Shown here: one piece after another, positions 41,605 to 62,859 of the stretch
Position numbering within the stretch: position 1 is the first letter of the stretch
How the letters are laid out: the number at the start of each line of letters is the position of its first letter
Assembly: GCF_007752135.1 (NCBI RefSeq)
Contig: NZ_CP036298.1
Span: forward strand, 6,688,501-6,752,500
DNA length: 64,000 nt
From: Aureliella helgolandensis
GTDB lineage: Bacteria > Planctomycetota > Planctomycetia > Pirellulales > Pirellulaceae
Direction: 5' to 3'
Position numbers and translations under genes: made by a program
Notes under the pieces: model-generated
Database searches by the model: none
Told to the model about the DNA's origin: nothing
What the model saw: only the letters and a program-made list of their open reading frames with translations

Positions 41605-41617
41605 CAGCCGTAAACGC

Positions 41618-43711: not shown

Positions 43712-44701
43712 ATGTTTAAGAAAATAATTTGTGCTGCGATTCTCGCTGCACTTAGTGTTGTTCCAGTTTCGAACGCCAACGCGACCATCTTGGTTAACAA
43801 TTGGACTGTGGACCTTGACGGAGCTTTTGGTACTGTAGACACCTTCGGCACGATCAGTGGAATCGATCAAATCGGTTTCACCGGTCTATTCCATCAACAC
43901 TTGGACGGTGCGCCTGTTGCAGGGTCACGCATCGCGGTCGATGGACTGATTCAGGTCAACGGCTTGGTAGGTGGACAGCCTGCAGCGAACATATCCAGTA
44001 AGGGCGCGATTCTATCCAGCTCAGTGATCCCACTTACCAAAACGTTTGAAATGACAGCTTCTTTCAGCGTGACCAATCAGATCACCGATGTAACGGGAGA
44101 CGTAGTCACTTTTGTCCATGAGGCGTTCGGGGCTGCGGCTATCGACGGAGCAATCTACGATGGGTACCTCGATATTTACTTAGATGACTTAGGTGGATTT
44201 TCCGGAAATCCCTTAAACACAGGGGCTGTATCGGATGTGAACCCAACCACCGGTGGTGCAGGCTTTGAGGATGGCGTCCACATTGCTCGCTTCGGAGTTA
44301 TGGGCGGGAACGAGGGAACGGTCAACCTTTCCGAGCTAGACGGCAACGATAGCGTAACTTTCCAGCTTGTTTGGGGTAAATCCGGAGTTCTATTCGACGA
44401 GTTCGGCGGCGACCTGTCCTTGCTGACCGGTGCCCCCGAAGAACTGCTCATCGCAGACGCTTCGAGCACTCTTGACTCGGATGGTGGACTGGGAGTTAGT
44501 GCTCCTAAACCAAGCAACTGGCCTGGCGCTGATGCAGGCGGATTCGCGTTCGACGAAGCCGGTTCATTCGGCGATGCGTACGGTCAAGAAGACGGTTCGC
44601 TAAACTTCCAATCAGTACCTGAACCTGCCTCTGCCACTCTTTGGTTAGGCTTGGTTGGTGCTACTTCACTCGTTCGGAAGCGTCGTAAGAATCGTGCATA
44701 G
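43712..44701 (+). CDS. PEP-CTERM sorting domain protein
   Basis: 329 residues. Signal peptide at the N-terminus (MFKKIICAAILAALSVVPVS...), a beta-rich acidic body with many Gly, Asp and Asn, and a C-terminal sorting signal: VPEPAS at about 302-307, a hydrophobic helix, then the basic RKRRKNR tail. Exosortase would cut at the PEP motif and release or anchor the protein in the envelope. The body has no named domain. A strong terminator follows. Confidence 0.92.
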   Translation: MFKKIICAAILAALSVVPVSNANATILVNNWTVDLDGAFGTVDTFGTISGIDQIGFTGLFHQHLDGAPVAGSRIAVDGLIQVNGLVGGQPAANISSKGAILSSSVIPLTKTFEMTASFSVTNQITDVTGDVVTFVHEAFGAAAIDGAIYDGYLDIYLDDLGGFSGNPLNTGAVSDVNPTTGGAGFEDGVHIARFGVMGGNEGTVNLSELDGNDSVTFQLVWGKSGVLFDEFGGDLSLLTGAPEELLIADASSTLDSDGGLGVSAPKPSNWPGADAGGFAFDEAGSFGDAYGQEDGSLNFQSVPEPASATLWLGLVGATSLVRKRRKNRA

Positions 44702-44855: not shown

Positions 44856-45926
44856 TCATTCGACCGACATAGTATCGGCGGTCATCTTCGCAATGGGCAT
44901 TCTTCCAACACGTCCCGTTGGCTGGTCTGCGTATCCAATTCGCATGAGAGTACACGGAAGAGCCGAATTCAGTTCGGAGGTTAACAGCCGACGAAAATTC
45001 TGCAGAAGCTCTGAAGCGAGTCTTTGATCGCGAGCACTGAGTGTCTTCAGTGTTCCGAATGCAACTAGATTCTGAAGAATTAGCAATGACATCATCGGTT
45101 GGGCAACCATCCCGTGTTCCGTCAATGCCAGCCAAGCTCGTTGCCAAACCCTGCCGCTGCGCCAGCTAGCGATCGATGAGAGCTCGGGAACGCTTACCAC
45201 ACAAACTCCGGAAGCACTCAGCATGAGCTGGCGTGAGACTCGCCCTAATGCAAGCCGTCCCCCCAGGCAATAGAACAGCGAATCAGGCATGGCTCGCATG
45301 GCTCGCAACATTTTGCGTTCCCCCCACCCAGCTTCCAATGAGCCAAGTGATAGACCCTCGTCAACCACGTCGGTATTCGCCTTATCAAACCGAATGCTTT
45401 TCAAGAACGCGTTGCGTATCGCTTTGGTGCCTAGGATCACAGCATCCGCCCTCGAAACCACCCCCGATAGTTTTAGTAGTCTCTCATTGTCCAAGATCCA
45501 GTGAGCGCGAACACCATCCAATTCGGTCGTGCTGGATTCTAGTTTTTGCCGTAATTCAGCAGTAATCTCTCCCCCTCGGTACACGCGGCGGTTGGTGGCC
45601 CGCAACAATAGAAGGGGATTTACTTGTCCTGAATTGGATGTTGGCGAAAGCCGAAAGTGCGTCGAGCTTCCTTTAGAGGGTTGAGAGAGCTGATATTCCC
45701 ATCCGTTTCCTTCTGCGGTTTGAATCATGTTCTCCACCGCGGCACCTACTGCGATGTCCGCCATGCGTTGCCCGACATTCATTGGGGAGGGATCACGCTC
45801 GGGATCGACTTCAATGGCTATCGTCCAATCTGCTCGATTCACCGTGAAACGCCAGGGTTGAGTATTATCTCCCGACGGTGCTAGACTCGCTGCTTCGAGA
45901 AGCGTGTCGAGGGCCGTTTTATCCAT
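44856..45926 (-). CDS. Nitroreductase-family protein (Rv1355c/Acg-like)
   Basis: 356 residues from ATG 45926; the frame extends to a GTG at 45995 with no conserved-looking sequence. The FMN-region motif ASLAPSGDNTQPWRF at about residues 13-27 is the nitroreductase signature, and RATNRR and a C-terminal IGYADQP follow as in Acg-like members. It lies 7 kb from a ThiF-like gene on the same strand. In mycobacteria these two domains are fused in Rv1355c-type proteins, so a joint pathway is possible. Substrate unknown. Confidence 0.7.
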   Translation of the reverse strand: MDKTALDTLLEAASLAPSGDNTQPWRFTVNRADWTIAIEVDPERDPSPMNVGQRMADIAVGAAVENMIQTAEGNGWEYQLSQPSKGSSTHFRLSPTSNSGQVNPLLLLRATNRRVYRGGEITAELRQKLESSTTELDGVRAHWILDNERLLKLSGVVSRADAVILGTKAIRNAFLKSIRFDKANTDVVDEGLSLGSLEAGWGERKMLRAMRAMPDSLFYCLGGRLALGRVSRQLMLSASGVCVVSVPELSSIASWRSGRVWQRAWLALTEHGMVAQPMMSLLILQNLVAFGTLKTLSARDQRLASELLQNFRRLLTSELNSALPCTLMRIGYADQPTGRVGRMPIAKMTADTMSVE

Positions 45927-46986
45927 GCAATTTCGCCTTGGCTGTTCGGTGTGTTGGAAACTGTTGATGCCTAGTGGGCTGTGGGGAACTACCAATTTAA
46001 GACACTTCAGTTTGGCGTTCCCGAGCTGCCAGTGTAGTGCACCGCCCGCGGTAGATTACAGCAACACAACGCAGTGTTCGAGCGGAAATCCTTAACGCAG
46101 AAGTCGAATGAGCATCTAAGCGATGCTTTATGCTCCTATCGTCGCTTCTTGGCAGCCTCTTCAGTTCTCCTCAACATGCACTAGCAACATACCGTCGGAT
46201 TGGTCGGAATAAGAGACCAACACTAAGCGCAGGATGCTGCCGAAGGACCGTTCCGAACTTCGGTTCGGAATCACTTCCCCGGTCAACTTTGTCGCTCTCT
46301 TGTCTTGTAAGACACAATCTCTATCGCTTCGCAGCGGAAATCCCGGCATTAGCCAATGGTATTTAGACAAATCATTCTATCGAAAGTCACGCTCCCGAGG
46401 CGAACGGGTTCCCTGAGCGAACAGCGTTGCGGTAGCAAGAAATATCGTCAGCAGAAAAATCAAAGCCATGCGAAAGTAGAGCCGCTGACGGGACTCCATT
46501 GAGAAACAAGAGCAGCTCAGTTTCCAGTTAGCCAGCATTCTAGAACAGGCTCCAAGTCTAGGCGCAGCAGTCCCCCTCTCCACCAACCGGAGGTACACCC
46601 ACTGATTCTTCTGACGAGCTAAAGCGAAAACGCAACCGTTCACCATCATCCTCATCCTCATCCTTCAGGCAGCTTCAATCGTTGCTTCAGGTTTAGTTTA
46701 AGTCGCAGACAACCGTGAACGCTTACGAAGCATCCAGGCGGACGTTTTGACAGGAAGATGGGGACAGAAAGATGAATTGCCCTGGCCAGCTTCCTGCCAA
46801 CAACACTCTCTGCTGCACCAGACTCGCCCCAGCCAAACTCAACGGAGAGGAGTAATACCAAGCAAGCTCACGATTGCGAAGCATTTCATCCGTTCATTCA
46901 CGACCTTCCTTCCCATCAGGCAGCCTCAATCGTTGCTTCGGGTTTGAGTCTAGGTTTGAGTCGCTGACAACCCTGAACGGCTACAC
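45927..46986. other. 1,060-bp gene-poor region with a ~65-bp direct repeat
   Basis: Two diverged copies of a segment with CAATCGTTGCTTC, ...GACAACC and GTGAACG lie at 46661-46726 and 46911-46986; the second touches the 3' end of the N-acyltransferase gene. A 40-codon minus-strand frame (46377-46499) encodes a basic peptide with one hydrophobic helix, but nothing else supports it as a gene. Confidence 0.45.
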
Positions 46987-47784
46987 TTAAGCAGCCATCG
47001 GAACCATCTGATGATCTTCCGCAGGTAGGTACTGCGCGAAATAGCGTTTTTCGGCGTCGGTCATGTGCGCTCCATCGAGCTGCCACGGAGCGTACTTGGG
47101 GTTGTAGACTTGGCCGAATAAGGGATAGCCTGTTTGATCAAGCTTGGCGAAATCGTGCACGCATAAGATGGCTGGATTGCCGCGCACGGCCGCGTACTGC
47201 TTGACCTCCGAATACCGCTCGCAACCAAACAATCGCTCGTAGACTTTAGCATGCTTCGGGTGCACGGCTAATACGAGACGATCGATGCCTCGTCGCCTGG
47301 CCGTTTGGATTACTAAGCCGATCACCTGAACGAGCGTTTGAAAACAGCGACGCTTGTCGTCCGTTTCCGTGCGACTCGCCAAGCAAGATACTTCGGCTAG
47401 TCGCAGGCCACCCGACCGCATAGCGTCGATCTCCGCTTTGAACAATGCCTCCATCGGCAAACCGGACTCTCCGTCACCGACCAAAGTAGCCGTAAAGCTG
47501 ACGCGCTGCTGCTGCTTGGCAACCACCACAGCAGTAGTATCCAGCAAATGATGCTTCATGACTCGCAGCCCCTGGGGATCCCCAGCAGACAAACCGGTTC
47601 GACAATAGAGCTCTTGAACCAAACGAAACGCCTGCTCACGTTCTGCCTGGCATTCGGTGACCTTCAAGTCCAAGCCTAAAGGTGTCGATTCGTCGCGTTT
47701 CCGTGTGCTGATGGGATCCAACCGGCTGGGAATCCGAGGTTGTTGGCGTGTGTTGCTGGTGGGCAATGCAGACCGAAATTCCAT
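46987..47784 (-). CDS. FeeM/exosortase-associated N-acyltransferase, copy 1
   Basis: 265 residues from ATG 47784 (CGAGG upstream); a longer frame to 47889 is less likely. It carries the blocks shared by all three copies in this window: LRLAEVSCLA (about 128-137) and HPKHAKVYERLFGCERY (about 175-191). They fit the GNAT-like fold of N-acyl amino acid synthases (FeeM) and the acyltransferases associated with PEP-CTERM/exosortase systems, which are related to LuxI-type synthases. The likely reaction is transfer of a fatty acyl from ACP or CoA to an amine. Acceptor unknown. Confidence 0.78.
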   Translation of the reverse strand: MEFRSALPTSNTRQQPRIPSRLDPISTRKRDESTPLGLDLKVTECQAEREQAFRLVQELYCRTGLSAGDPQGLRVMKHHLLDTTAVVVAKQQQRVSFTATLVGDGESGLPMEALFKAEIDAMRSGGLRLAEVSCLASRTETDDKRRCFQTLVQVIGLVIQTARRRGIDRLVLAVHPKHAKVYERLFGCERYSEVKQYAAVRGNPAILCVHDFAKLDQTGYPLFGQVYNPKYAPWQLDGAHMTDAEKRYFAQYLPAEDHQMVPMAA

Positions 47785-47977
47785 ACTAAAGCCTCGAAGT
47801 ATTGAGAAGAGAGGAGATAAGGCTGTCGAGTTGAAGAGTGTTCTTGTTGATAGGGGGCTGGCTGAGATCTCGCGAATCACGCCATACAAGTCAAGCCAGA
47901 AAATAGTCTAGCTCTCTCGGAAGGCATGAAAAAACACATCACCGCAGCTCAGGCAGCCGATTTGAATCAAGCGTGCC

Positions 47978-48322
47978 TCAGGGAGCAACAGGCTCAGGAT
48001 CACAGCTTGCGAGGCCGAGCATATCTGAGAGAGAATTCACACGGACTTGAAGAATCCCCGCCGATTCGGCAGGATTAAAATGGACGATCCGTAAATTGGG
48101 TGCCATTTCAAGTGCATGGGATAGCACAGCGGATAATTCAGGTCCGTCGCTCCAAGAGTGAATCCACAATTGGGGTTGATGCTGGTCAATGAGTGCCAGG
48201 CATTCGAAGAAATTGCACGATTCACCAATCACTTCGGTGTCACTATGCTGTTCAATATCGTATCGCAGGACTTGCTGGCAAAGCTGTTGCTCGATGGAGA
48301 GTAAGACGCGAATTCTATTCAT
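47978..48322 (-). CDS. Degenerate response-regulator receiver-like protein
   Basis: 114 residues from ATG 48322. IRVLLSIEQQLCQQVLRYDI, then a helix and LIDQHQPQLWIHS occupy the positions of receiver strands 1 to 3, but the phospho-acceptor Asp after strand 3 is replaced (LWIHS instead of LLLDL), and the Asp pair near the N-terminus is absent. A stand-alone pseudo-receiver of this kind could act by binding rather than phosphorylation. It lies 193 bp upstream of N-acyltransferase copy 1 on the same strand. Confidence 0.5.
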   Translation of the reverse strand: MNRIRVLLSIEQQLCQQVLRYDIEQHSDTEVIGESCNFFECLALIDQHQPQLWIHSWSDGPELSAVLSHALEMAPNLRIVHFNPAESAGILQVRVNSLSDMLGLASCDPEPVAP

Positions 48323-48964
48323 AAGAGGTAGTTTGCGATTCTTGCTTGCGGGAGGAGTGAAGAGAAGCACAAGTGAACGGAGCTGATTATGCCAATTGAG
48401 GCGACACGGATCCATGATTCTTTGGGGCCGAAAAGGGTTCAATTGTGGCAAGTCTTCGTGAATCCAAAGGACTAGTTCCTCTACTTCAACTGGGCGGCAT
48501 CAAGACTAGCTCAGCGGTGCCCCAATCTGCCGTTTCACTCAAACACAAATCGCTGCGTCAGTACGACTAAAGATGCTGACCTCGTTCATGCGAGTGCTGA
48601 AATCACAACCCGCCGCCTGAGCAAAGGTCGGATCCACGCGTTTAGCCACGCCGTATCCGATATGGAGTGCGATGACTTGTCATCGCTGTGGAGTAACGCC
48701 GGGATGCTGAGTGGCTTGCCCACCGACTGAATGTGTGCGAAGGCCGAAAAGCATCCATCTTCGCTCTGCTCTTGCAAGTAATTGGATCGCAAAAACAACC
48801 GGCTGACGGGCAAGAAAGCTACGACAAGTCGCAGCACTCCATACCATCGGGGCGTGACAGCCTCTTTTCGCATCGTCGAGCGTGATCTGTCGGCGGACTG
48901 TCACGTCTGAATGCTAGCACTACAAGGAAAGTGGCTGGCGTTAATCCCCCCATTGCCGATTGCC
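48323..48964. other. 642-bp intergenic region with a fragment of repeat A
   Basis: About 35 bases near 48,601 (CAACCCGCCGCCTGAGCAAAGG) are a worn copy of the family A core. A 95-codon minus-strand frame (48586-48873) ends inside that fragment and has no recognised domain; I do not call it a gene. Confidence 0.45.
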
Positions 48965-49642
48965 TTAGAAGCGGCTGACCCAATTCTCCTGCCGCGCCAA
49001 CTCCACCGCTTCCATGCGTGTTTCAACGCTTAGTTTCTCGAGGATGTTGTGCACATGATTTTTGACGGTGTAGAGCGACACACTGAGCTCCTTGGCAATC
49101 TGCTTGTTGCTCTTCGCTTTGGCGAGCAAGCCGATCACCTCTTGCTCGCGGCCAGTAAGGCGACAAGCTGAGATGGCAGTGGGGACTTGCCAAGCTGGTG
49201 ATTGGGCAATCCGTGAAAACTCAGCAAACATCGTGGCAGCGAAATCGCCAGAACAGAAGCCACTCCCCTCAAGGACTCGATCGATGGCCAAGTTGAGCTC
49301 ATCCAAGGAAGCGCGTTCCAACACGCAGCCGTGCACGCCGCAGGCCAAACACTCGGCTAAGGAGCCATGGTCATCGGGGACCAACACGATGATCTTGGCA
49401 GGCGAGGAACTGGTTTGAACACGCCCAATAATTTCGGTAGGAAGAACCCCAGGTAAATTTAGATCAAGCAGAACGACATCCGCTGAATTGAAGAGCTCTT
49501 CACCGATCTGAGCGATTTGAGCGTGATCGATGGCTATCGCTTCATCATCTCTCGCCGTCTTGATGTAATTCACCAAGCAGTCGCGGAACAAGCCATTCCG
49601 GTGAAAGACAAGTACCTGATTTGTCGCTTGCGTCGTAGTCAT
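48965..49642 (-). CDS. NarL/LuxR-family response regulator
   Basis: 225 residues. Receiver domain (about 8-125) with phospho-acceptor Asp60 in ADVVLLDLNLPG; C-terminal LuxR-type helix-turn-helix (about 158-220) with LTGREQEVIGLLA and SNKQIAKELSVSLYTVKNHV. It binds DNA upon phosphorylation by a cognate kinase, which is not in view. Being next to acyltransferase genes, it may control them; that is inference. ATG start at 49642. Confidence 0.92.
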   Translation of the reverse strand: MTTTQATNQVLVFHRNGLFRDCLVNYIKTARDDEAIAIDHAQIAQIGEELFNSADVVLLDLNLPGVLPTEIIGRVQTSSSPAKIIVLVPDDHGSLAECLACGVHGCVLERASLDELNLAIDRVLEGSGFCSGDFAATMFAEFSRIAQSPAWQVPTAISACRLTGREQEVIGLLAKAKSNKQIAKELSVSLYTVKNHVHNILEKLSVETRMEAVELARQENWVSRF

Positions 49643-50257
49643 AGCAATCGTTTCCTGGGCAGTGAAACTGAGCTATCCACCTTCGAGAAATCTCGGGAGG
49701 CTGCTGGAAAGGAACTCAAGTCTTAATAACTTTCTTCGGTGACCGAATCGTGCGCACGCTTCCCTTGCCATTCCCCATTCCATGCCATTGACTCCTCCGC
49801 GTTGCTAGCACATCAATGCTGGCAAATACTCAGGAAGCACCAAAAGACGACGAGCACACCGGCCTTTCGGTCCCAATACGGGAAAATCAATATTGGTTAA
49901 ACAACGAATAACATGGCTCACGTTCTCAACGGAGAGCAGCTAAAAGGATACCAAAGCAGCGGTGAGGAGAAGTTTTTAAAGCGATAAGTTGATCACTTTA
50001 TATATGAATCCCCGGATTGTGGAACACCGGCAAACAGGGGGGATTGTGCTAAGACATTGCGCCTAACAACCACTTTCAAGCAGCGATAAAGGTCTAGAGT
50101 CATCCCTTAACCGGCCCCGTGAGGACTATAGCAACGGGATAAAGCGTCCCGGTGGCCACACCATCGATGGCAACTCTGTCTTTGCAGAGATCTGACGAGA
50201 GGGAGATTGACAACCGCGAAAGCCGCAGCGCGTAAACAATGCACGAACAGCTACATT

Positions 50258-50333
50258 GGGGGGGGCGCAATATTGGGGACAGAGCATTGCGAGTCGGGGG
50301 GGGCGCAATATTGGGGACAGAGCATTGCGAGTC
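50258..50333. repeat. 38-bp perfect tandem duplication
   Basis: Two identical units, each a run of eight G followed by CGCAATATTGGGGACAGAGC and ATTGCGAGTC. Recent duplication, since no base differs. Confidence 0.92.
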
Positions 50334-50504
50334 TTGCAGATCTTCCGCAAGTCCCTCTTCTTAGACTCTTGACCAACCTGATGGCGCCAGCGAGGACCGT
50401 TGCTTTGTAGGAATGCCGTCGAATACGTGACAACTTAATGAAAGTCCTGGTCCCAAGTGGACTCCACGCCAAGCACAACAATCACAGACGACAGAGAGCT
50501 TTAC

Positions 50505-50625
50505 AACCGCGAAAGACGCTAAATACGCGAAAGTTGAAGCTCGTAAAAATGGCACGTAAAGTGACATTGGGGCAGTAAAGTGACATTGGGGACAGACCAT
50601 TTCGCATCTTTCGCGGTTGTTGCCT
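50505..50625. repeat. Dispersed repeat family B, inverted arms
   Basis: Left arm ACCGCGAAAGACGCTAAATA then CGCGAAAG (about 50,510) and right arm TTTCGCATCTTTCGCGGTTG (about 50,600), separated by about 65 bp that include GTGACATTGGGG twice. Confidence 0.85.
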
Positions 50626-50934
50626 TCTTGGCTCTGGCCAGGCGGGATCGCGCCAACGGGAGCTATGGCGAGCAGGAAAGCTAGCGCACCCCACAAAGGT
50701 TCTATTAAAAGGCAGCACGACTGGCGTTTTGCCCCCACCATCGAGCGGCCCATACTACTGAGTCGCTCAACTTAGTACAAAATTACTAGTTAGGCTGAAA
50801 GGCAAGCGGCCCAACTCACGAAATAGAGTAGCTACTGGCCGCTAATTACGGCTATGCAAACCATCATGAATTCTGCTCCCTGCCACCTTTTGCTAGCCTC
50901 ATGAAACGCACTATCTGAATCTACGAAATCGCTC

Positions 50935-51666
50935 ATGCGGATATGCAACGCCCATTCTGAAACTGCTGGCGCCAAGATCACTTGCCGGCTGGCACACAGC
51001 CGTGAGGATTTTTGCAACGCATTTCGGCTTCTGCACCAACAGTATTGTGCGGCCGGATTATGCCGCCCCAACCCTAGCGGCATGCGCATCAGCCCACAGC
51101 AATTGCAGCCGGAAAGCCAAGTTATCGTGGCCGAGCAGAGACGGCAGGTCGTCGGCACTGTTTCTTTGACTATTGACAGCAAACGGCAGTTGCCGCTGGA
51201 GAACATATTTGGCACAGAGGTGCGCGCGTTACGCACCCGCAAGTTGCGTTTGCTAGAAGTGGGATGTTTGGCTGCGACGGGGAGTACACACCGCTTCCCT
51301 TCCCCCGTATACGCTGCACTGACTCGAGCAGCTATCGAAGTTGCACAGCGGAGTGGTACGGACCGCATGATAGCCGCCGTACACCCGCGTCATTCGAAAT
51401 TCTACGAGCGTAGCATGGGTTTCCAACGACTGAGCCAGCCGGTTGCCTACGAGATGGTCGAGGGGCAGCTGGCCGTCTGCGTCTCAGGCTCGCCAAATTC
51501 GCCGGGGAACTACCGCAATCCATGGCGACGAATTTTCTTTGAAGGCCCTCTAAATCCTTTGCTCTCGTTGAATTCTGCGATGCTTCCCTTCGACCGCGCC
51601 TATTTCTCCAGGTTGCTCAATCAGCTCCAGCCAGCGTCGCTACCCACCCGCCACCGCGTGGCATAG
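50935..51666 (+). CDS. FeeM/exosortase-associated N-acyltransferase, copy 2
   Basis: 243 residues, ATG 50935. Family blocks: LRLLEVGCLAA at 104-114 and AAVHPRHSKFYERSMGFQRL (about 147-166), aligned with copies 1 and 3. It is on the opposite strand from copy 1 and has a different C-terminal tail (about 60 residues ending in LPTRHRVA). Copies this different in sequence probably use different acceptors or acyl donors, but no residue shows which. Confidence 0.78.
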   Translation: MRICNAHSETAGAKITCRLAHSREDFCNAFRLLHQQYCAAGLCRPNPSGMRISPQQLQPESQVIVAEQRRQVVGTVSLTIDSKRQLPLENIFGTEVRALRTRKLRLLEVGCLAATGSTHRFPSPVYAALTRAAIEVAQRSGTDRMIAAVHPRHSKFYERSMGFQRLSQPVAYEMVEGQLAVCVSGSPNSPGNYRNPWRRIFFEGPLNPLLSLNSAMLPFDRAYFSRLLNQLQPASLPTRHRVA

Positions 51667-51837
51667 CGCGAACCGCTATCCAGAACAAGCACCCTATCCC
51701 TCCGATACTCACGTGGTAGAGGATAAATAGAAGGAGATCCCCGTCGAGCTCATCGGTCATCCCTTGCTTGATCTTCCTCGCGGTGCATTTTCATCTTGCA
51801 GCACCTGGGAACGGGGCACGTTGGCCTTGCTTTACGG

Positions 51838-52600
51838 CTTGTTGATTTAAGAGCGTTTTCAGATCGACCACGAAGGCAGCACCCTGAATCCTCCTGTAGC
51901 AGCGACCACTCTTCCTTGCTCACGCGGCGGGTTACGATTTCAACAAGCCGTCGCGCGGCGAATTGCCATCACCGAGCTCGGCCTGGAAATCCATTGTCTG
52001 GGCACCTCAAACTGCCTGCGTTTTGGAACAAGGCAAGAGCCTCAGGGGCAATGCAACAGCCGGTAAAAACCTAGCAACGAGGTGCTCGGAGCTTGCTTAG
52101 ACAACTGTCGTATAGGGAGCACCTCTAGTTCTAACGCAGAGGCAGTGCTCTAAATACTCAGTAGCGAAAACCGCTCTTCCTTGCTCACCGGGCTGTCGAA
52201 ATAGTAACCCGCTGCGTGAGCAAGGAAAGATAGTTGCCGCTACAAGGCAGTTTGGGACGCGACCTGCGCGTTAAAATTCAAATTGCTATTAAATCTACAG
52301 CCCGTCACGCGGCGGGCTACGGTTTCAACAAGCCGTCGCGCGGCGAGTTGCAATCACTGAGCTCGGCCTGGAAATCCATTGTCTGGGCACCTCCGACTGC
52401 CAGCGTTTGGAACGAGGCAAGAGCCTCAGGGGCAATGCAACAGCCGGTAAAAACCTAGCAACGAGGTGCTCGGAGCTTGCTTAGACAACTGTCATATAGA
52501 GAGCACTTCTAGTTCTAACGCAGAGGCAGTGCCCGAAATACTCTGTTGCGAAAACCACTCTTCCTTGCTCACGCGGCGGGTTACGATGTCAACATTGCGG
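51838..52600. repeat. Family A repeats in a tandem block
   Basis: A unit beginning CAACAAGCCGTCGCGCGGCG at 51941 recurs at 52326 (period 385) and its opening recurs at 52590. Within it are family A copies in both orientations, including 52189-52320, which shares CGGGCTGTCGAAATAGTAAC with the end of epsI. The shared stretch also contains GCAACAGCCGGTAAAAACCT and CTCGGAGCTTGCTTAGACAA. No gene inside. Confidence 0.88.
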
Positions 52601-52651
52601 ACGTAGCGAGGTGCGATCGAAACGCTTTGGAATGTGGTGGAGTAGAAAACG

Positions 52652-53656
52652 CTAGGTACTACTAGCCGACTGGCCATACCCCAGCTTGAGCATTCGCTTC
52701 TTCAGCACGTGGCGTTTCAGGCGTTGCAGAGGATTGCGATTCCCCATGACCAACCGGCCTTGGCGCAGTAGTCCTCGATAGGCATCAAATTGTGCGTAGG
52801 CAGGAGCGGCGCGAAGGCGCCCGCGGCCAAGCAGAATTTTGACCGCTTCTGTGCCGACAACTCCACTGGCTAAATGACAGGCTGCAGCCACCGAAGGCCC
52901 ACGGCCACTGGCATCCACATAGGAGAAATCGAAATAGGGTACGTGCGTAGCGCGTGGAGCTAGGCCCATGGCGAACGCGGCGAACATTTCAACCGGGCTC
53001 ATCGCATCGTGCAAGTCAAAGTAGTCATCAAAACTCATTCCATTTGGGTCAAACAACAGCCAAGCGGTACTGAATCCAATAGGTCCAGCAGTGATCGCCC
53101 AAATACCACGGCGACGAGCCTCATTGAACAACATCCGACGAGCTTTGAATGCAAAAAAGTCGACCGAATCGACCAACAAGTCGACCCCATCGAGAAAGCG
53201 ATCGACATTGTCAGCGGAGACAAACTCGTTCATGGTGTCGAGCTCGAGCTCGGGATTGACTCCCCGCGCTGAGTCCGCCAACACTTGAGTCTTGGAACAA
53301 CCAATGGTGTTGAGTGTAGCGCCAAACTGACGGTTGAAATTCTTCATTTCGAATTCGTCGGCATCCGCAATTCGAAATTTCCCAACCCCTAAACGGGCCA
53401 AAGTCATCAAGTGGATTCCGCCCACACCTCCCATACCAGGTATGGCAACTCGCGTCCCTCGGAGTCGTTGTTGCTCCTCTGGAGACACAAGCCCCAAATT
53501 GCGAGAAAAAGCAGTCTCATAGTCCCAGGACGCATCGACGGAAGGGATCTCTTCTTGTGTTTCCGACTCAGAGGACATCTGCAAGCCTTGCGCAATTCGA
53601 ATTGGAATTCCGTTTTGTGTAGTACTGATCTCTTCGATAGAAGTTGGAACGAGCAT
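52652..53656 (-). CDS. ThiF/MoeB-like E1 adenylyltransferase
   Basis: 334 residues (an internal ATG at 53578 is an alternative start). The nucleotide loop GMGGVGG is at 74-80, and IADADEFEMKNFNRQFGA (about 96-113) carries the Asp, Asn and Arg residues that bind ATP-Mg in MoeB, ThiF and HesA. VDLLVDSVDFFAFKARRML is the following conserved block. The paired CxxC zinc ligands of MoeB are not seen. It should adenylate a carboxyl group (a protein C-terminus or a small molecule). No ubiquitin-like partner is encoded nearby. Context links it to the nitroreductase and acyltransferase genes. Confidence 0.83.
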   Translation of the reverse strand: MLVPTSIEEISTTQNGIPIRIAQGLQMSSESETQEEIPSVDASWDYETAFSRNLGLVSPEEQQRLRGTRVAIPGMGGVGGIHLMTLARLGVGKFRIADADEFEMKNFNRQFGATLNTIGCSKTQVLADSARGVNPELELDTMNEFVSADNVDRFLDGVDLLVDSVDFFAFKARRMLFNEARRRGIWAITAGPIGFSTAWLLFDPNGMSFDDYFDLHDAMSPVEMFAAFAMGLAPRATHVPYFDFSYVDASGRGPSVAAACHLASGVVGTEAVKILLGRGRLRAAPAYAQFDAYRGLLRQGRLVMGNRNPLQRLKRHVLKKRMLKLGYGQSASST

Positions 53657-54165
53657 CGTAGCCTATACTGAATAGAATCGCTAAGAGTTTGCCACTGAAA
53701 TACAATTTTGGTTACGCTAACGGGTGGTCTGCTCTAAAAACTTTTCATAGCCCGGTATGCTGGCGGTTTAGACTTGGATCCCGTCCCAGGCTGGAACTGC
53801 ATCGCTGATCATGATCACGCACTGACGTACCGCCTTGGGTGAGGAGCGGGCAATGGCATAGGCTTCCGACTTGCCGTTTTTCGCATGGCAAGCAGGAAGC
53901 CAACCCCACGCTTTAGGACCTTCGGAACAATTATTGGCGGATAGTCGCCGAATCGCTCCGCCGGTTCGTTCGGGAAAATGCCGATCGGCGGAGCGATCTG
54001 GCGACACTTATCGTTCCGACGTTCTTTAGATCCGACAATTGCTTTCCGCGTTGCTCGGGCAATTTTCCTCCCAGGCCCTCTGGTGGGCAAAGATGTCTAC
54101 AGGCGGCGCACTGCTGGCAAGACATTCGACAGGCGTCGACTCCCCGCGCTCAACCCTCCAGAGTC
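53657..54165. other. 509-bp region without a recognised gene
   Basis: Several short frames on both strands give Arg/Pro-rich peptides with no domain; nothing supports any of them. No repeat family member was identified. Confidence 0.4.
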
Positions 54166-54519
54166 TTAGCGATGAGCCAGCTTGGAAAGCATATCCGCCA
54201 CAATTTCTTGATCTGCCCCCTGTTGCTCGCTCTGGATGGTCAGTAACTGTGAAATAAGCTCTGGCACCATAGCGATGTCCAAACTCATGACCACATCTTC
54301 CCGTTTCCAATGCGCTAGCCAACAAGCATCTTCGAGTTGTTCTGCAAACTGCAACAGGAGGCTATTCTCCGTGCTCCCTGACCGAACTTGGGCAGCCAGG
54401 AGAATCTGCCAACTAGCGGCGCGTACGCGATCGAGATGGAGATCGCAAGTCAGTTTTTCACCGACTGGCTGACTACCCGTTTGCGGATTGGTTTCATTGA
54501 GTTGGGAGCGTGTTTCCAT
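54166..54519 (-). CDS. Hypothetical small helical protein
   Basis: 117 residues from ATG 54519. Acidic, mostly helical, with Cys27, no signal peptide and no membrane segment. Codon use is gene-like and the frame has no competing strand overlap. It is not recognised. It lies upstream of, and divergent from, the ABC exporter operon and may belong with the ThiF group on the minus strand. Confidence 0.55.
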   Translation of the reverse strand: METRSQLNETNPQTGSQPVGEKLTCDLHLDRVRAASWQILLAAQVRSGSTENSLLLQFAEQLEDACWLAHWKREDVVMSLDIAMVPELISQLLTIQSEQQGADQEIVADMLSKLAHR

Positions 54520-54808
54520 GATCAATCCCTAAATCGAATTTCATTAGAAGGGTCCGATGACTGAACAACTCTAGGTTCCCACCAAGATTGCAGCGGCCGC
54601 TCATTAACATTTAGCCGTGCCCAAATCTCTCCATCTAACGATTTTGCGGCTTTTCCCTGTCGCTCTACGTGCTAGTGCAATACACAGCCCCTGCGTCCCT
54701 CCTATGGTGGCCGTCCGAGGTGCGGATGCTCTTGCTCTACAGGGCAGATTCCGCTAATCCAAGGTGAGTCCATTGGCCCCTTTTTTGACGACTCGACATA
54801 GTTTTCCC

Positions 54809-55939
54809 ATGCTCTGGTACTTGTCCCTGAGAACCCTGCTGTTTGACCGTGGCAAATTGCTGACGGGGCTGGTCGGCGTTGTGTTTTCAGTCATCCTTGT
54901 GAATGTGCAGGGAGGGCTGTTTTACGGGCTCATTTCCAAGGCAAGCTATCTGGTAGACCGCAGCCAAGCAGATATTTGGGTGGGTAGTTACCAAATGCAC
55001 AACGTCGATTTCCCGCACGACGTACCCGCCCGCTGGCTGCAGCGGATACGAAGTATTCCTGGAGTAGCCGAGGCGGACCCGATTCGCATTGGATTTTCCG
55101 AGATGAGCCTTCCCGATGGAGGGCACGAGGGAGTCACCGTGGTTGGAATTATGCGTGACAGCAGTCTGGGACGATCGTTTGAAGTTATTCAAGGAAATCC
55201 CCAAGCGCTGGCTGATCCGCTTGGAATCGTCGTGGATGAGTGCGATGACGAAAAACTACAATATCCAGCATTGGGCGAAATTCGGGAAATAGGCGGAAAA
55301 CGAACTCGGGTCGTGGCCAAGAGTCGTGGCGTATTGAGCTTTCTGGTGACCCCTTACGTTTTCACGACGCTGGATCGCGCGGCGGACTTCATTGGCTCCG
55401 ATCGCACGCTGGTGTCCTATTTTTTGGTACGCACGGTGCCAGGGGCGAACAAGGCAGAGGTCTGTCGGGAGATTGACCGGCGTTTACCATCAGCGACCGC
55501 CATGACGGCTCAAGATTATGCTAACGTCTCCATCAATTTTTGGACTACGCGAACCGGTATTGGCCTCAGTTTCGGCGCCGCTGCTGGACTCGGTCTACTC
55601 GTCGGACTCGTCATGGTCGGCCAAACGCTGTACGCCATGGTGCTGGATCGAATCAGTGAGTACGCGACCCTCAAAGCGATTGGTGCTACCGAACGTGAAA
55701 TCATCACGCTGCTGACGCTCCAGTCCGCGACGATTGCCATCGTCGGTATTTGCCTGGGAACGGTACTCTCCTTCCTAATTGGACTGCTGCTAAGTACCCC
55801 CCGCACCACCATTGCCATTCCAGCGATGCTCTACGTAGGCAGCGGCTTGTTGGTCTTCACCATCTGCCTGCTGGCCGCCGGTTTGCCTTACTTGCGCGTA
55901 CGCAGTGTCGATGCTCACACCGTGCTCCAAGGAAGTTAG
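54809..55939 (+). CDS. DevC-like ABC transporter permease (FtsX/MacB type)
   Basis: About 376 residues from ATG 54809; GTG 54764 is an alternative that adds 15 residues. One N-terminal helix (about 17-38), a large periplasmic domain (about 40-255), then three helices, with the coupling stretch ISEYATLKAIGATEREI between the first two, as in FtsX/MacB/DevC permeases. It works with the ATPase and the fusion protein that follow; gaps are 5 bp and a 4-bp overlap, so one operon. Confidence 0.87.
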   Translation: MLWYLSLRTLLFDRGKLLTGLVGVVFSVILVNVQGGLFYGLISKASYLVDRSQADIWVGSYQMHNVDFPHDVPARWLQRIRSIPGVAEADPIRIGFSEMSLPDGGHEGVTVVGIMRDSSLGRSFEVIQGNPQALADPLGIVVDECDDEKLQYPALGEIREIGGKRTRVVAKSRGVLSFLVTPYVFTTLDRAADFIGSDRTLVSYFLVRTVPGANKAEVCREIDRRLPSATAMTAQDYANVSINFWTTRTGIGLSFGAAAGLGLLVGLVMVGQTLYAMVLDRISEYATLKAIGATEREIITLLTLQSATIAIVGICLGTVLSFLIGLLLSTPRTTIAIPAMLYVGSGLLVFTICLLAAGLPYLRVRSVDAHTVLQGS

Positions 55940-55944
55940 CCAGC

Positions 55945-56793
55945 ATGCCCCTAGAGCCAAACCATCCACCAGAACCCAGCAACAGGGCAATTCCCGCCAC
56001 CCCAGGGGCAGATCCCGACTATTTTGCTGCCTTTCGGATCGCAGAGGCCTTGGATCTGCCAGAGGAACTCGGCCCAACAGCGGATTTCTCGCATAGTCCT
56101 AAGCCCCCCACGGACGCACAAACGGCGGTGATTCGCGCCGTGGGAATCGACAAGTCCTACATGATCGGCGATCAGCGCTGCCCAGTTCTCCGCGACGTGC
56201 ACTTCGCAACCCACGCGGGTGAATGCGTCTTCCTGTCTGGACCATCCGGTGGTGGCAAGAGTACTCTACTGGCTATCCTGGGCTGCCTGTTGCAGCCGGA
56301 CCAAGGACAAGTATTCCTGAGTGGACGTCGGGCCGACCAACTAACACCTCAGCAGTTGGCCTTCCTGCGGCGCGACAACATTGGCTTTGTCTTCCAGCGA
56401 TTTCAATTGATCCGAGGCCTGACGGCGATGGACAATGTAGCCCTACCACTCACACTTCAAGGTCAATCCCTGCCCGATGCTCGCACCATGGCAGCCGATC
56501 TGCTGCGGCAAGTCGGCTTGGAACAACACCTTCGCGCCCTGCCGACGGCCATGAGCCCCGGACAATGCCAACGCGTGGCGCTGGCACGTGGCCTGATCAC
56601 TCGTCCTCAACTTCTGCTAGCCGATGAGCCCACGGCGGCCCTCGATGCGAAATCGGGTTTGGAGGTCATGGAGTTGCTGCGGGAACTGGTGCACCAAACG
56701 GGAGCTGCTGCCGTCGTGGTGACGCACGATCCTCGGATCCATCACTTTGCCGACCGCATTTGCGAGATGGAAAACGGGAGTCTCCGCACGTGA
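55945..56793 (+). CDS. DevA/LolD-like ABC transporter ATPase
   Basis: 282 residues from ATG 55945; a longer frame from 55750 lies inside the permease gene and is rejected. Walker A GPSGGGKST at 99-107, Q-loop Gln151, signature MSPGQ at 203-207 (LSGGQ in most ABC proteins), Walker B LLLADEPT at 223-230 and a terminal VTHDPR His. An N-terminal extension of about 60 residues is unusual for LolD-like ATPases. It powers the adjacent permease. Confidence 0.92.
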   Translation: MPLEPNHPPEPSNRAIPATPGADPDYFAAFRIAEALDLPEELGPTADFSHSPKPPTDAQTAVIRAVGIDKSYMIGDQRCPVLRDVHFATHAGECVFLSGPSGGGKSTLLAILGCLLQPDQGQVFLSGRRADQLTPQQLAFLRRDNIGFVFQRFQLIRGLTAMDNVALPLTLQGQSLPDARTMAADLLRQVGLEQHLRALPTAMSPGQCQRVALARGLITRPQLLLADEPTAALDAKSGLEVMELLRELVHQTGAAAVVVTHDPRIHHFADRICEMENGSLRT

Positions 56794-57935
56794 AAAAACT
56801 CAACACAATCGTAGCGATTGCCATCGCACTGGTGGTGGCCGTCATTGTAGCTCGGCAATTTCGGCCATCGACGCTGCCAGACCGTTCCGCCGCCTTGCGG
56901 CAAACCAGCTCTTCAACAGAACGGGTCGCTGCATCTGGATGGATTGAGGGACGCACTTCCAACGTCGAGGTTCGCGCGCGGCTGGCAGAGCAAATCGAAG
57001 AGATCTTGGTCAAGGAAGGGGATTGGGTATCCAAGGGCCAACCTCTGGTGACCCTCGACGCTTCCGTCCGAGTGCTGGAGCAACAGCTGGCGCGGGCGGA
57101 ACTCGCACAAGCCCAAGCAAAGCTGGAGCAGTTGGAGAACGGGGCTAGGACAACTGAGATCGATGTCGCAAGACACGAACTGGCCGCACGCTCTGCAGAG
57201 CTCGATGGCGTGCGCAAGGGACTCGAGCGCATCCAAGTCCTTCGGGCATCCAACGCAGCCAGCCAACAAGCCTACGATGAAGAATTTGCAAGATTCAAAA
57301 CCCTGGAGGGCCTGGTCGCTGCGGCCCAGAATCGCCTGGCAACTCTGGCAGATCCGCCACGACAAGACGAACGCAGTGCCGCTCAAGCGATGGTGGAAGC
57401 GGCCGCCTCGCGGCTATCGTTGGCCGAAGTCAATCTCCGCCGCACCCGTATTGTTTCCCCTCTGGACGGGAGAGTAATGCGAGTGCAGTGTGAAGTTGGT
57501 GAATTGGCCCGTGCCGACTCTTCAGATCCACTGGTAATCCTGGCGGACACTCGACAATTGCGGGTCGTGGCCGAGGTCGATGAATTCGACGCACTGCGAG
57601 TAGCTATCGGTCAGCCCGCGATCATTACCGTCGACAGTGTTGAAGGCATCTTGGCGCGGGGTGTCGTGATAGACTTGGAACCTCAGGTAGGTCAAAAACT
57701 ACTGTTCACTTCCCAGCGAGGCGATCGACTCGATTCCTTTAGCCGCCGCGTTTGGATCGCCTTGGATCAGGCTGGTGACTTGCCCGTTGGTTTACCCGTA
57801 GACGTCGTGTTGTCGACGGCCGAACAGCATCGACGCAGCAGCCAATCTGCTCCAGCAAGTGGCCCGCTGGCAGACACACCGCCTGCAACTGCTCCAGGTG
57901 CACAATACATCAATACGCAACGAGAGTCCCCGTAG
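56790..57935 (+). CDS. HlyD/DevB-like membrane fusion protein
   Basis: About 381 residues. GTG 56790 overlaps the ATPase stop (GTGA) and puts an N-terminal helix (about 5-22) at the start. A lipoyl-like half (ASGWIEGRTSNVEV, then EGDWVSKGQPLVTLDA), a coiled-coil hairpin (about 95-205) and the second half SPLDGRVMRVQCEVGEL follow. This is the periplasmic adaptor of DevBCA/MacAB-like exporters, which in cyanobacteria export glycolipids. The substrate here could be a lipid-like product of the acyltransferases (inference). Confidence 0.9.
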   Translation: MKKLNTIVAIAIALVVAVIVARQFRPSTLPDRSAALRQTSSSTERVAASGWIEGRTSNVEVRARLAEQIEEILVKEGDWVSKGQPLVTLDASVRVLEQQLARAELAQAQAKLEQLENGARTTEIDVARHELAARSAELDGVRKGLERIQVLRASNAASQQAYDEEFARFKTLEGLVAAAQNRLATLADPPRQDERSAAQAMVEAAASRLSLAEVNLRRTRIVSPLDGRVMRVQCEVGELARADSSDPLVILADTRQLRVVAEVDEFDALRVAIGQPAIITVDSVEGILARGVVIDLEPQVGQKLLFTSQRGDRLDSFSRRVWIALDQAGDLPVGLPVDVVLSTAEQHRRSSQSAPASGPLADTPPATAPGAQYINTQRESP

Positions 57936-59715: not shown

Positions 59716-60555
59716 CTAGCAACTCAACTCCTGCAGGTACTGAGACGTCTCTTCGGTCCATGCGGTTTGCTGCATGTCACTAGCGGTGAATGGTTCACCA
59801 AACAATCGCTCGTGAATGCTCGTTCCCTTGAGGCGTTCGAAATTCATCACGAGAGCAACCGCCGGATTTCCCTCGGCGTAGGGACAACTCTTCAGACCGC
59901 CAAATTGCTCGAATCCCAATGCACGCTTGTAGAATCTGGCGTGTCGCGGGTGGGTGGCAAGCACCAGTCCGTTCATTCCGCGAGACTGAGCCACTTGAAC
60001 GACCAGGCAGGACAAACGGCCAATAACATTTCTGAAGCGGGTTGGAGAATCACGGCGATCAGCCAGACAGCCAATTTCGGCTACCTTCAATCCGTTCTGC
60101 CGCTGAAATTCAATTTCCTCCGCGTACATCGACTCCATGGGCAATCCCGAGGGATTATCGGCAATCATGGTCAGTGTGGAAATAACCTCCCCTACATACT
60201 TAGCCACAAAAACTTCAGTCGTGGGCAAGAGATGATAGGGGGTTCTACGAATCCCCTCCTCATTTCTGGCAGTTAGGCCAGCTGAGACATAGGCTTCGTA
60301 CAATAGACGAAAGGCTGCATTGAGCTCGGTTCTCGTCCTAGCCAATGCAACTTCAATTTCAGGGTATTTCGGAGGAACGACCGGAACGGTAACGTGCCCC
60401 ACGGCAGGGAGTGAGGTAGTGCTGAACACTATGCGACAAGCCTTCAATTGTTGGTGACTGTCATCGCCGGTCCCTTGGGAGTTCTGTTTTATCGCGTTGC
60501 GGCGAAGCCTCCGCCCTAGAGGCCATTCCAGGCTGAAGCTTTTTCGAACCGGCAT
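59716..60555 (-). CDS. FeeM/exosortase-associated N-acyltransferase, copy 3
   Basis: 279 residues, ATG 60555. The first ~65 residues are basic and not conserved with the other copies. Family blocks: LKVAEIGCLADR at 156-167 and ATHPRHARFYKRALGFEQF (about 200-218). A GLPMESMYAEE stretch is also shared with copy 1 (GLPMEALFKAE). It diverges from the export lipoprotein gene, with an intergenic gap of about 257 bp that should hold both promoters. Confidence 0.8.
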   Translation of the reverse strand: MPVRKSFSLEWPLGRRLRRNAIKQNSQGTGDDSHQQLKACRIVFSTTSLPAVGHVTVPVVPPKYPEIEVALARTRTELNAAFRLLYEAYVSAGLTARNEEGIRRTPYHLLPTTEVFVAKYVGEVISTLTMIADNPSGLPMESMYAEEIEFQRQNGLKVAEIGCLADRRDSPTRFRNVIGRLSCLVVQVAQSRGMNGLVLATHPRHARFYKRALGFEQFGGLKSCPYAEGNPAVALVMNFERLKGTSIHERLFGEPFTASDMQQTAWTEETSQYLQELSC

Positions 60556-60812
60556 CTCTCCAAACCTAGGACGGTTTGCGTCCAGTTGACGGGCGTAAGG
60601 CTTCTCTCGCCCAATTCAACTTTACCTCTGAGGTTAGAACTGCCGATTGAAGGGATATTGCGGGTAACACGCAAAGTGACAGACTCCTTGTGGGGGCTTT
60701 CTCCATCCAATCCATTGGGAGTACCCTCATTTGCTAACGTCACAATGGGTAAGAAGCCGATACTTCCCCCAAGCGGTCTTTGTTTGGTGTGGGCGAGAAA
60801 AGGAATTCTCCC

Positions 60813-62472: not shown

Positions 62473-62859
62473 CTACTTCTTCAGTTGGCGAATTATCCGC
62501 TCCGACTCTACTTGCGGATAATGACCGAAGTTGACAAGCAACCCAAGTTCACAGCCGGTAGCTTTCAAGTAATTATGGACTTGAGCGCGATGCTCGTCCT
62601 TCAGCATTGAGACCGATATGATCTCGACAATGATCTTCTCGAAACAGATAAAATCAGGCTTGAAAATCTGCTGCAACGGTTTGCCTTTGTAAGTTAGCCG
62701 GAGACCAGGCTGCGCAAGGAATGGAACGTTGCAAAGTCCGATTTCTAAGACCAAACATTCCTGATAGACCGCTTCAAGAAATCCACACCCCTTCTCCTTG
62801 TAGACTTCGAACACCGCTCCCATGATCTGATACGACTCGTCTTTGAAGAGTATGCTCAC
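62473..62859 (-). CDS. GxxExxY protein (PD-(D/E)XK-like)
   Basis: 128 residues from GTG. GCGFLEAVYQECL gives the GxxExxY motif; FKPDFICFEKIIVEIISVS is the position of the nuclease core (Asp, then Glu-x-Lys), but the Lys is Ile here (EII), so nuclease activity is doubtful. The C-terminal HRAQVHNYLKATG and LGLLVNFG match the family. Function of the family is not known. Family B repeats lie on both sides, a pattern I associate with such genes in other bacteria. Confidence 0.87.
   Translation of the reverse strand: MSILFKDESYQIMGAVFEVYKEKGCGFLEAVYQECLVLEIGLCNVPFLAQPGLRLTYKGKPLQQIFKPDFICFEKIIVEIISVSMLKDEHRAQVHNYLKATGCELGLLVNFGHYPQVESERIIRQLKK

What the first reader, a model, noticed from the sequence alone, without database searches (positions are those of the whole stretch)
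44856..57935. Candidate small-molecule system: N-acyltransferases with ThiF-like, nitroreductase-like, LuxR and ABC exporter genes
Two FeeM-type N-acyltransferases, an E1-like adenylyltransferase without visible zinc CxxC pairs, a nitroreductase-like protein, a LuxR regulator, a pseudo-receiver and a DevBCA-like exporter lie within 13 kb, with a third acyltransferase 2 kb further on. Nitroreductase and ThiF domains are fused in mycobacterial Rv1355c-type proteins. FeeM relatives make N-acyl amino acids, and DevBCA exports lipids. Together they suggest synthesis, modification and export of an acylated amino compound in an exosortase setting. That these genes form one pathway is inference.
Basis: partly seen in the sequence, partly recalled or inferred. 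Interest (0 to 1): 0.75.

Follow-up and report, generated by a model that had tools for sequence, protein, structure and literature searches.

The report
Stieleriacine-type N-acyl amino acid cluster
This stretch of a planctomycete genome carries enzymes that join fatty acids to an amino acid and then probably cyclise and oxidise the product, a pathway type already described in related bacteria, together with an exporter that is inherited with it, which gives a testable route for how such molecules leave the cell.

Summary
Three FeeM acyltransferases (the only three found in this 8.44-Mb genome), a PRK08223-type ThiF, an Acg-like nitroreductase, a LuxR regulator, a receiver-fold protein and a DevC/DevA/DevB-like exporter lie at 44.8-60.6 kb in an exopolysaccharide locus; an exosortase gene lies 3.3 kb outside the window. 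The enzyme set is published: it is the stieleriacine (NasY/ThiF/nitroreductase) type, parallel to the oxazolone pathways TyzABC and TrzAS. The product, the reactions in this organism and export are inferred.

The parts
43712..44701 (+). Protein with a PEP-CTERM sorting signal (VPEPAS ... RKRRKN), convergent with the nitroreductase, 155 bp away
   Evidence: Motif read in the sequence; PF07589 19.3 bits, below the cut-off of 20.7. A PEP-CTERM gene holds the same convergent place in S. maiorica (L147) and G408 (L142), but no homologue of the window protein was found among 85 PEP-CTERM proteins collected
44856..45995 (-). Acg/TyzC-like nitroreductase-fold flavin oxidase, proposed 2,3-desaturase (true start possibly near residue 23, my reading)
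   Evidence: profile A5 finds Acg 2ymv at 7.9e-19; 47% identical to L137, 40% to the S. maiorica protein
46987..47889 (-). FeeM1, N-acyl amino acid synthase
   Evidence: PF21926 136.3 bits; 8-row clade with S. maiorica 37340, support 100/99
47978..48451 (-). Receiver-fold protein that seems to lack the phospho-acceptor Asp (true start probably near 48322)
   Evidence: orthologues beside LuxR and FeeM in L139, L142/L143, L147, L149
48965..49642 (-). NarL/LuxR-type regulator with degenerate receiver
   Evidence: close orthologue in 7 of 241 Pirellulaceae genomes at E <= 1e-45, all 7 with FeeM
50935..51666 (+). FeeM2, N-acyl amino acid synthase
   Evidence: PF21926 133.5 bits; unplaced in the tree
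52652..53656 (-). ThiF/E1-like (PRK08223) adenylating protein, proposed cyclase
   Evidence: NF006077 421.3 bits; closest solved structures are TcdA/CsdL; conserved ATP-site residues; no CxxC
54166..54525 (-). Conserved small protein of unknown function (119 aa)
   Evidence: Orthologues near ThiF or NTR in L139, L142, L147, L149, L152; model pLDDT 78.9, best PDB match E 0.1, none at 0.001
54764..55939 (+). DevC-like FtsX-type ABC permease
   Evidence: PF02687 59.4 bits, TIGR01185 99.9 bits; subfamily co-occurs with FeeM
55750..56793 (+). DevA-like ABC ATPase (ORF as listed; real start probably near 55945, my reading)
   Evidence: PF00005 99.4 bits; Walker A at residue 163 of the ORF
56760..57935 (+). 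DevB-like membrane fusion protein
   Evidence: PF16576 46.2 bits, TIGR02971 104 bits
58585..59319 (+). Second protein with a PEP-CTERM-like signal
   Evidence: Motif read in the sequence; PF07589 15.1 bits, below the cut-off
59716..60555 (-). FeeM3, N-acyl amino acid synthase of the NasY1-containing clade
   Evidence: PF21926 157.9 bits; 18-row clade with S. neptunia NasY1, support 99/99
60780..62099 (+). Wza-type polysaccharide export protein (flanking EPS gene)
   Evidence: PF02563 36.5 bits

Best explanation
A stieleriacine-type biosynthesis and export cluster. FeeM enzymes join a fatty acyl group (from acyl-ACP or acyl-CoA) to the amino group of an amino acid, probably an aromatic one. ThiF adenylates the free carboxylate of the N-acyl amino acid and the amide oxygen closes the ring to an oxazolone, a step of the kind TcdA performs on t6A. 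The nitroreductase-fold flavin enzyme introduces the 2,3 double bond using O2. The product stays an oxazolone or opens to the N-acyl dehydroamino acid. The DevC/DevA/DevB-like ABC exporter carries the N-acyl amino acid product across the envelope. The LuxR-type regulator and the receiver-fold protein control the locus, which sits in an exosortase/exopolysaccharide region. SHOWN here: gene families, co-inheritance, neighbourhood conservation, clade membership. INFERRED: each reaction in this organism, the amino acid, the chain length, export, regulation.
For: Families over cut-off. PRK14852 (989 aa) matches FeeM, ThiF and NTR in different parts of one profile, though below its own cut-off; L090 is a FeeM+ThiF+NTR protein, and ThiF is fused to NTR in 28 of 80 named loci. 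FeeM is in 8 of 8 genomes with ThiF over the cut-off in a phylum sample of 246 and in 13 of 14 in Pirellulaceae (Fisher 1.4e-10); the window's genome is in both sets. DevC subfamily: 34 genomes, all FeeM+, 0 of 201 FeeM- (Fisher 1.3e-35; 15 DevC genera, counting G289's split gene, all among the 17 FeeM genera of 68, p 3e-13); within 10 kb of FeeM in 26 of 34. Nearest structures: FeeM 2g0b, TcdA 4yed/4d79/4rdh, Acg 2ymv. Homologous steps were shown biochemically (PMC10404671, PMC12856293), and nasY1 by knock-out (PMC12479983).
Against: In S. neptunia the synthase beside ThiF/NTR (NasY2) is not the main stieleriacine enzyme, and no acyl-oxazolone was observed for stieleriacines, thalassotalic or kyonggic acids, so the authors call the ThiF role enigmatic (PMC12479983). 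The window genes lie on both strands and are not one operon. In S. maiorica ThiF and NTR are about 18 kb apart. Five of 40 FeeM+ genomes lack the DevC subfamily. Of 43 named ThiF genomes without FeeM nearby, 20 have a strong FeeM (over 100 bits), 19 only weak matches and 4 none. The nitroreductase of the window is only 19-26% identical to 10 of 14 ThiF-linked ones aligned. No SfmM2-like methyltransferase was recognised among the 27 window proteins scanned with Pfam.
Confidence: 0.82

Rival explanations
1. Two modules that only share a neighbourhood: FeeM + exporter make and export plain N-acyl amino acids (surfactant or aminolipid of the matrix), while ThiF + nitroreductase act on a different substrate.
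For: 27 of 40 FeeM+ Pirellulaceae lack the strong ThiF, and most of these still have the exporter subfamily. In S. neptunia the clustered NasY2 is not the main stieleriacine synthase.
Against: FeeM-ThiF-NTR protein L090 and PRK14852; in Pirellulaceae ThiF was found without FeeM in 1 of 14 genomes; homologous enzymes act in sequence in vitro (PMC10404671, PMC12856293).
Confidence: 0.1
2. The E1-like protein activates a ubiquitin-like or sulfur-carrier protein, as ThiF and MoeB do, to load sulfur or modify a protein.
For: Fold membership (PF00899).
Against: No CxxC and only two Cys; closest to TcdA; paired with FeeM and NTR. I did not search specifically for a carrier protein.
Confidence: 0.04
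3. The ABC genes are a general MacAB-like drug or lipoprotein exporter that lies here by chance.
For: FtsX/MacB domains; hits below the DevC and DevB cut-offs. DevB-like genes were found in only 8 of 80 named ThiF loci.
Against: This DevC subfamily is confined to FeeM genomes (34 of 34) and lies within 10 kb of FeeM in 26 of 34; also beside FeeM or ThiF outside the family in L035, L038, L040, L043, L044, L045.
Confidence: 0.08

Closest known systems
Stieleriacine cluster of Stieleria maiorica Mal15 (BGC0002080) and S. neptunia Enr13
   Same: NAS genes, ThiF-family protein, nitroreductase-family oxidoreductase, transporters; in S. maiorica also several NAS, a regulator, a PEP-CTERM gene beside the oxidoreductase and EPS genes upstream; FeeM1 and FeeM3 each have an S. 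maiorica relative in their clade; LuxR, receiver-fold protein and 119-aa protein are shared
   Different: Gene order and spacing: ThiF 6.7 kb from NTR (about 18 kb in S. maiorica), exporter 1.1 kb from ThiF; no SfmM2-like methyltransferase or fatty acid desaturase recognised among the 27 window proteins scanned
TyzABC (M. tuberculosis) and OxzAB (P. rubra) tyrazolone pathways
   Same: N-acyltransferase + ThiF cyclase + nitroreductase-fold flavin oxidase
   Different: Actinobacterial or fused forms; the neighbour named in the passages read is MmpL9, not a DevC-type exporter; OxzAB known only as quoted in those papers
TrzAS (Rv1356c-Rv1355c) tryptazolone pathway
   Same: ThiF and FDO domains acting on N-acyl amino acids
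   Different: Fused ThiF-FDO; window proteins are separate and score far below the Rv1355c-family cut-off (70 and 139.5 against 476)
DevBCA exporter of heterocystous cyanobacteria
   Same: FtsX-type permease, ATPase and membrane fusion protein
   Different: Below the TIGR01185 and TIGR02971 cut-offs; linked here to FeeM. Glycolipid export by DevBCA is recalled and from listings only

Membership tests
Stieleriacine-type NasY/ThiF/nitroreductase cluster | N-acyl amino acid synthase (FeeM/NasY) | tested here: met
   Three PF21926 proteins over cut-off; FeeM3 in the NasY1 clade
Stieleriacine-type NasY/ThiF/nitroreductase cluster | ThiF-family protein and nitroreductase-family protein in the cluster | tested here: met
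Stieleriacine-type NasY/ThiF/nitroreductase cluster | Tyrosine C- or O-methyltransferase for methylated products | tested here: inconclusive
   Only an FkbM-type methyltransferase (41618-42499) was recognised among 27 window proteins scanned; the S. neptunia gene is itself unsettled
Stieleriacine-type NasY/ThiF/nitroreductase cluster | Production of N-acyl dehydrotyrosines | not testable with these tools
   Needs LC-MS
PRK08223 (NF006077) | Score over 266 bits | tested here: met
   421.3 bits
Rv1355c/TrzS family (NF005901) | Score over 476 bits, ThiF fused to FDO | tested here: not met
   ThiF 70 bits, NTR 139.5 bits, separate genes
Oxazolone cyclase (TyzB/TrzS) | ATP-site Asp (D217 of TrzS) and ATP-dependent cyclisation of an N-acyl amino acid | not testable with these tools
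   TrzS and TyzB sequences were not at hand; D163 is invariant in 11 of 11 ThiF rows and aligns with an Asp of TcdA
DevBCA exporter | DevC TIGR01185 over 290 bits, DevB TIGR02971 over 129 bits | tested here: not met
   99.9 and 104 bits: resembles, not filed as DevBCA
PEP-CTERM proteins | PF07589 over 20.7 bits | tested here: not met
   19.3 and 15.1 bits; the VPEP-hydrophobic-basic motif is present in both sequences
Exosortase system | Exosortase (PF09721) in the locus | tested here: met
   197.1 bits at G000:C1:6684457-6685212, 3.3 kb upstream of the window; five matches over the cut-off in the genome

The most novel reading that the evidence does not exclude
The ThiF-nitroreductase module is a dedicated partner of the exosortase system: it makes an electrophilic N-acyl oxazolone that is exported and reacts with, or is bound by, the fast-evolving PEP-CTERM surface protein encoded next to it, giving matrix proteins a lipid that holds them to the cell surface or exopolysaccharide. 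This would explain why unrelated PEP-CTERM genes keep being found immediately downstream of ThiF-nitroreductase across phyla.
Probability: 0.1. Interest if true: 0.8.

Novelty: new member of a known kind. Interest (0 to 1): 0.47.

Why it matters
Stieleriacines alter biofilm formation of other bacteria (PMC7293339, as summarised in the passages of PMC12078418), but their exporter is only guessed at in print and the link of these synthases to exosortase loci is unexplained. The near-perfect co-inheritance of one ABC exporter subfamily with FeeM in Pirellulaceae names a concrete gene to delete in S. neptunia, where gene deletions work (PMC12479983). The concentration of PEP-CTERM genes just downstream of ThiF-nitroreductase in several phyla makes the exosortase link testable with one protein and one small molecule.

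Tried and rejected
Homology of the adjacent PEP-CTERM proteins: some pairs and small groups match, others not, and none matches the window's first one, so place rather than sequence is shared. A fold for the 119-aa protein: model made, no significant PDB match. Recent transfer judged by base composition: 50-60% GC over 38-64 kb, no clear break. Craig et al. 2011 (NAS-exosortase link) is not held; I know it from passages of PMC7293339 and PMC12078418. G258 has ThiF without FeeM; the PEP-CTERM protein on that 6.9-kb contig matches Roseateles and other Pseudomonadota, so I suspect contamination, but it is kept in the 14.

Biases: the DevC profile was built from 14 FeeM- or ThiF-linked DevC proteins, so its confinement to FeeM genomes tests absence elsewhere and is not an unbiased draw. 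At E <= 1e-40, 69 of 241 genomes match; I took the 34 at 463 bits or more after seeing the gap (next whole gene 249 bits); at most 8 candidates per genome were scored. FeeM+ means E <= 1e-10. Related genomes are not independent, hence the genus count. In one search the densities quoted are for all 80; the p-values drop three (L063, a copy of a locus already held; L113 and L116, near duplicates). Both sides: 32 of 48 PEP-CTERM genes within 2 kb, p 6.2e-9; downstream only: 27 of 43, p 6.3e-13. The sorting-signal pattern gave 85 hits in 8100 ORFs and 2 in shuffled ones. Literature: one search listed 10 of 27 papers and one search listed 25 of 58; in these listings, and the passages I opened, I saw no test of the exporter link and no statement of the ThiF-NTR/PEP-CTERM position as a general rule. 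In print already: a PEP-CTERM gene in the S. maiorica cluster, a suggestion that exporter genes of the S. neptunia cluster secrete stieleriacines, a Rubrivivax table listing ABC, ThiF and exosortase-type genes in one locus without comment on a link in the passages seen, and a comparison of nasY clusters in Stieleria.
Full report
WHAT IS THERE. The window lies in an 8,439,957-base single-contig planctomycete genome. Its family in these searches also holds Stieleria: contig lengths of G451 and G453 equal those of JC639 and JC645, G450 (9,894,293 bases, four FeeM in one region) fits S. maiorica Mal15, and G452 (10.98 Mb, three FeeM whose spacing fits the locus tags of NasY1-3) I take for S. neptunia Enr13; the last two are inferences. 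From 43.7 to 60.6 kb the window encodes: a PEP-CTERM-like protein (+), a nitroreductase (-), FeeM1 (-), a receiver-fold protein (-), a LuxR-type regulator (-), FeeM2 (+), ThiF (-), a 119-aa unknown (-), DevC-DevA-DevB-like genes (+), a second PEP-CTERM-like protein (+) and FeeM3 (-). The genome has three FeeM matches at E <= 0.001, these three, and one PRK08223 match over the cut-off. Upstream is an exopolysaccharide locus (sugar transferase, flippase, O-antigen ligase, MBOAT, EpsI-type DUF3485), with an exosortase 3.3 kb outside the window.

ENZYMES. The FeeM profile finds solved FeeM (2g0b, 1.8e-19). The ThiF protein is closest to TcdA/CsdL (4yed, 4d7a, 4rdh, 4d79), which dehydrate and cyclise N6-threonylcarbamoyladenosine; the resemblance of that substrate to an N-acyl amino acid was already argued for Stieleria. 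It shares 24 invariant columns with 10 aligned relatives, among them D98, K122 and D163, and has no CxxC. The nitroreductase profile finds Acg (2ymv, 7.9e-19). Two nitroreductase types accompany ThiF in planctomycetes: the window's is 47% identical to that of G352, 40% to that of S. maiorica and 33-35% to those of G110 and G076, but 19-26% to the ten others aligned.

DO THEY BELONG TOGETHER. In a phylum sample of 246 genomes, ThiF over the PRK08223 cut-off occurs in 8 and FeeM over cut-off in 33; all 8 have FeeM. In 241 Pirellulaceae genomes, ThiF occurs in 14 and FeeM (E <= 1e-10) in 40; 13 of 14 overlap. NTR is beside ThiF or in the same cluster in 13 of those 14 (and the window; the miss is G258, a 6.9-kb contig). 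In 80 named loci, NTR is present in 58 (fused to ThiF in 28) and FeeM in 37, 35 of these within 5 kb. Of the 43 genomes without FeeM nearby, 39 have some FeeM match and 33 a match over cut-off, but only 20 have one over 100 bits. One Desulfobacula protein carries all three domains (L090), as does the family PRK14852.

EXPORTER. A profile of FeeM- or ThiF-linked DevC finds 34 Pirellulaceae genomes at 463-654 bits (plus G289, split between contigs); the next whole-gene hit has 249 bits. All 34 are FeeM+; none of 201 FeeM- genomes has it; five FeeM+ genomes lack it (G373, G397, G403, G467, G482). FeeM and DevC lie on one contig in 29 of 34 and within 10 kb in 26. Within the window's own genus (G000 and G251-G264 in these searches) the window's genome alone has both. 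Outside the family all three exporter genes sit beside FeeM/ThiF in L035, L038, L040, L043, L044 and L045. Across the named loci DevB-like genes are uncommon (8 of 80; DevC 16, DevA 20), so the link is shown mainly for planctomycetes. The S. neptunia paper had suggested that permease and exporter genes there might secrete stieleriacines, without evidence.

REGULATORS. The LuxR-type protein has a close orthologue in 7 of 241 genomes, all with FeeM and six with ThiF. LuxR, receiver-fold protein and a FeeM keep their order in the window, G388, G408, S. maiorica and JC639.

FEEM PARALOGUES. An 80-row maximum-likelihood tree puts FeeM1 with S. maiorica 37340 and relatives (100/99) and FeeM3 in an 18-row clade (99/99) that holds S. 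neptunia NasY1; FeeM2 is unplaced. Deletion of nasY1 cut stieleriacines to near the detection limit; deletion of nasY2, in the cluster with ThiF and NTR, or nasY3 did not (PMC12479983). FeeM3 is therefore the best candidate for the main synthase here, and cluster position alone is not proof of function.

PEP-CTERM NEIGHBOURS. In 80 named ThiF loci a PEP-CTERM gene lies within 2 kb of ThiF/NTR in 31, within 3 kb in 38 and within 10 kb in 43; a looser look adds a few variant signals, for example in Janthinobacterium. Downstream densities per kb are 0.325, 0.109, 0.116, 0.051, 0.018, 0.037, 0, 0.021 and 0.063 for the first to ninth kb; upstream 0.069 in the first and 0-0.017 beyond. With three loci dropped, 27 of 43 genes fall in the first 2 kb downstream (binomial 6.3e-13; relatedness not corrected). 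The window gene is convergent with NTR at 155 bp, as in S. maiorica (153 bp) and G408 (86 bp), though its sequence matches neither. PEP-CTERM genes are not rare in this genome (33 PF07589 matches at E <= 1, 26 over the cut-off), and they also lie near FeeM-only loci. In print, NAS genes are linked to exosortase loci in general and a PEP-CTERM gene is noted in the S. maiorica cluster.

PAPERS SEEN. PMC12479983: abstract, introduction, two results sections, term search. PMC7293339: one section and passages. PMC7378531: one section and passages. PMC10404671: abstract and first part of the results. PMC12856293: abstract, first part of the results, TrzS section, discussion. PMC12254169, PMC12078418, PMC3684757, PMC2907700: passages only. 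PMC12254169 reports clusters related to that of S. maiorica in S. neptunia, JC645 and JC639. Others: listings only.

VERDICT. The biosynthetic type is known, so this is a new member of a known kind, in a genus other than that of the Stieleria genomes. What is added is evidence for the exporter, the likely main synthase, and a position-specific tie to PEP-CTERM proteins. The chemistry in this organism is inferred.

Noticed in passing
window 40256-63609, ten places: A 30-base motif (near ACCGCGAAAGATGCGAAATACGCGAAA) recurs ten times, part of longer interspersed repeats; several listed ORFs seem to be products of these repeats (my reading).
   Followed up: partly
window 39984-41654: A roughly 516-bp unit is tandemly repeated about three times, overlapping the 3' end of the gene at 39003-40169 (epimerase-like, recalled).
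   Followed up: no
window 51896-52577: Two copies of a roughly 385-bp unit lie in the gap between FeeM2 and ThiF.
   Followed up: no
window 41618-42499 (-): FkbM-type methyltransferase 2.4 kb from the nitroreductase; could be an EPS gene or a tailoring enzyme.
   Followed up: no
window 35759-38575 (-): Large protein with G8, CEMIP beta-helix and RTX calcium-binding repeats.
   Followed up: no
L135 (G258:C78): A ThiF contig in a same-genus genome carries a PEP-CTERM protein most like those of Roseateles and other Pseudomonadota; possibly contamination of the assembly.
   Followed up: partly
L081, L083, L086, L087, L089, L092, L104, L122, L127, L129, L134: Eleven named loci carry two DevC/FtsX-type permease genes in tandem near ThiF, at nearly the same distance in several; a possible alternative exporter.
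   Followed up: no
window 62473-62859 (-): Small protein that looks like a GxxExxY-family protein (recalled, not tested).
   Followed up: no
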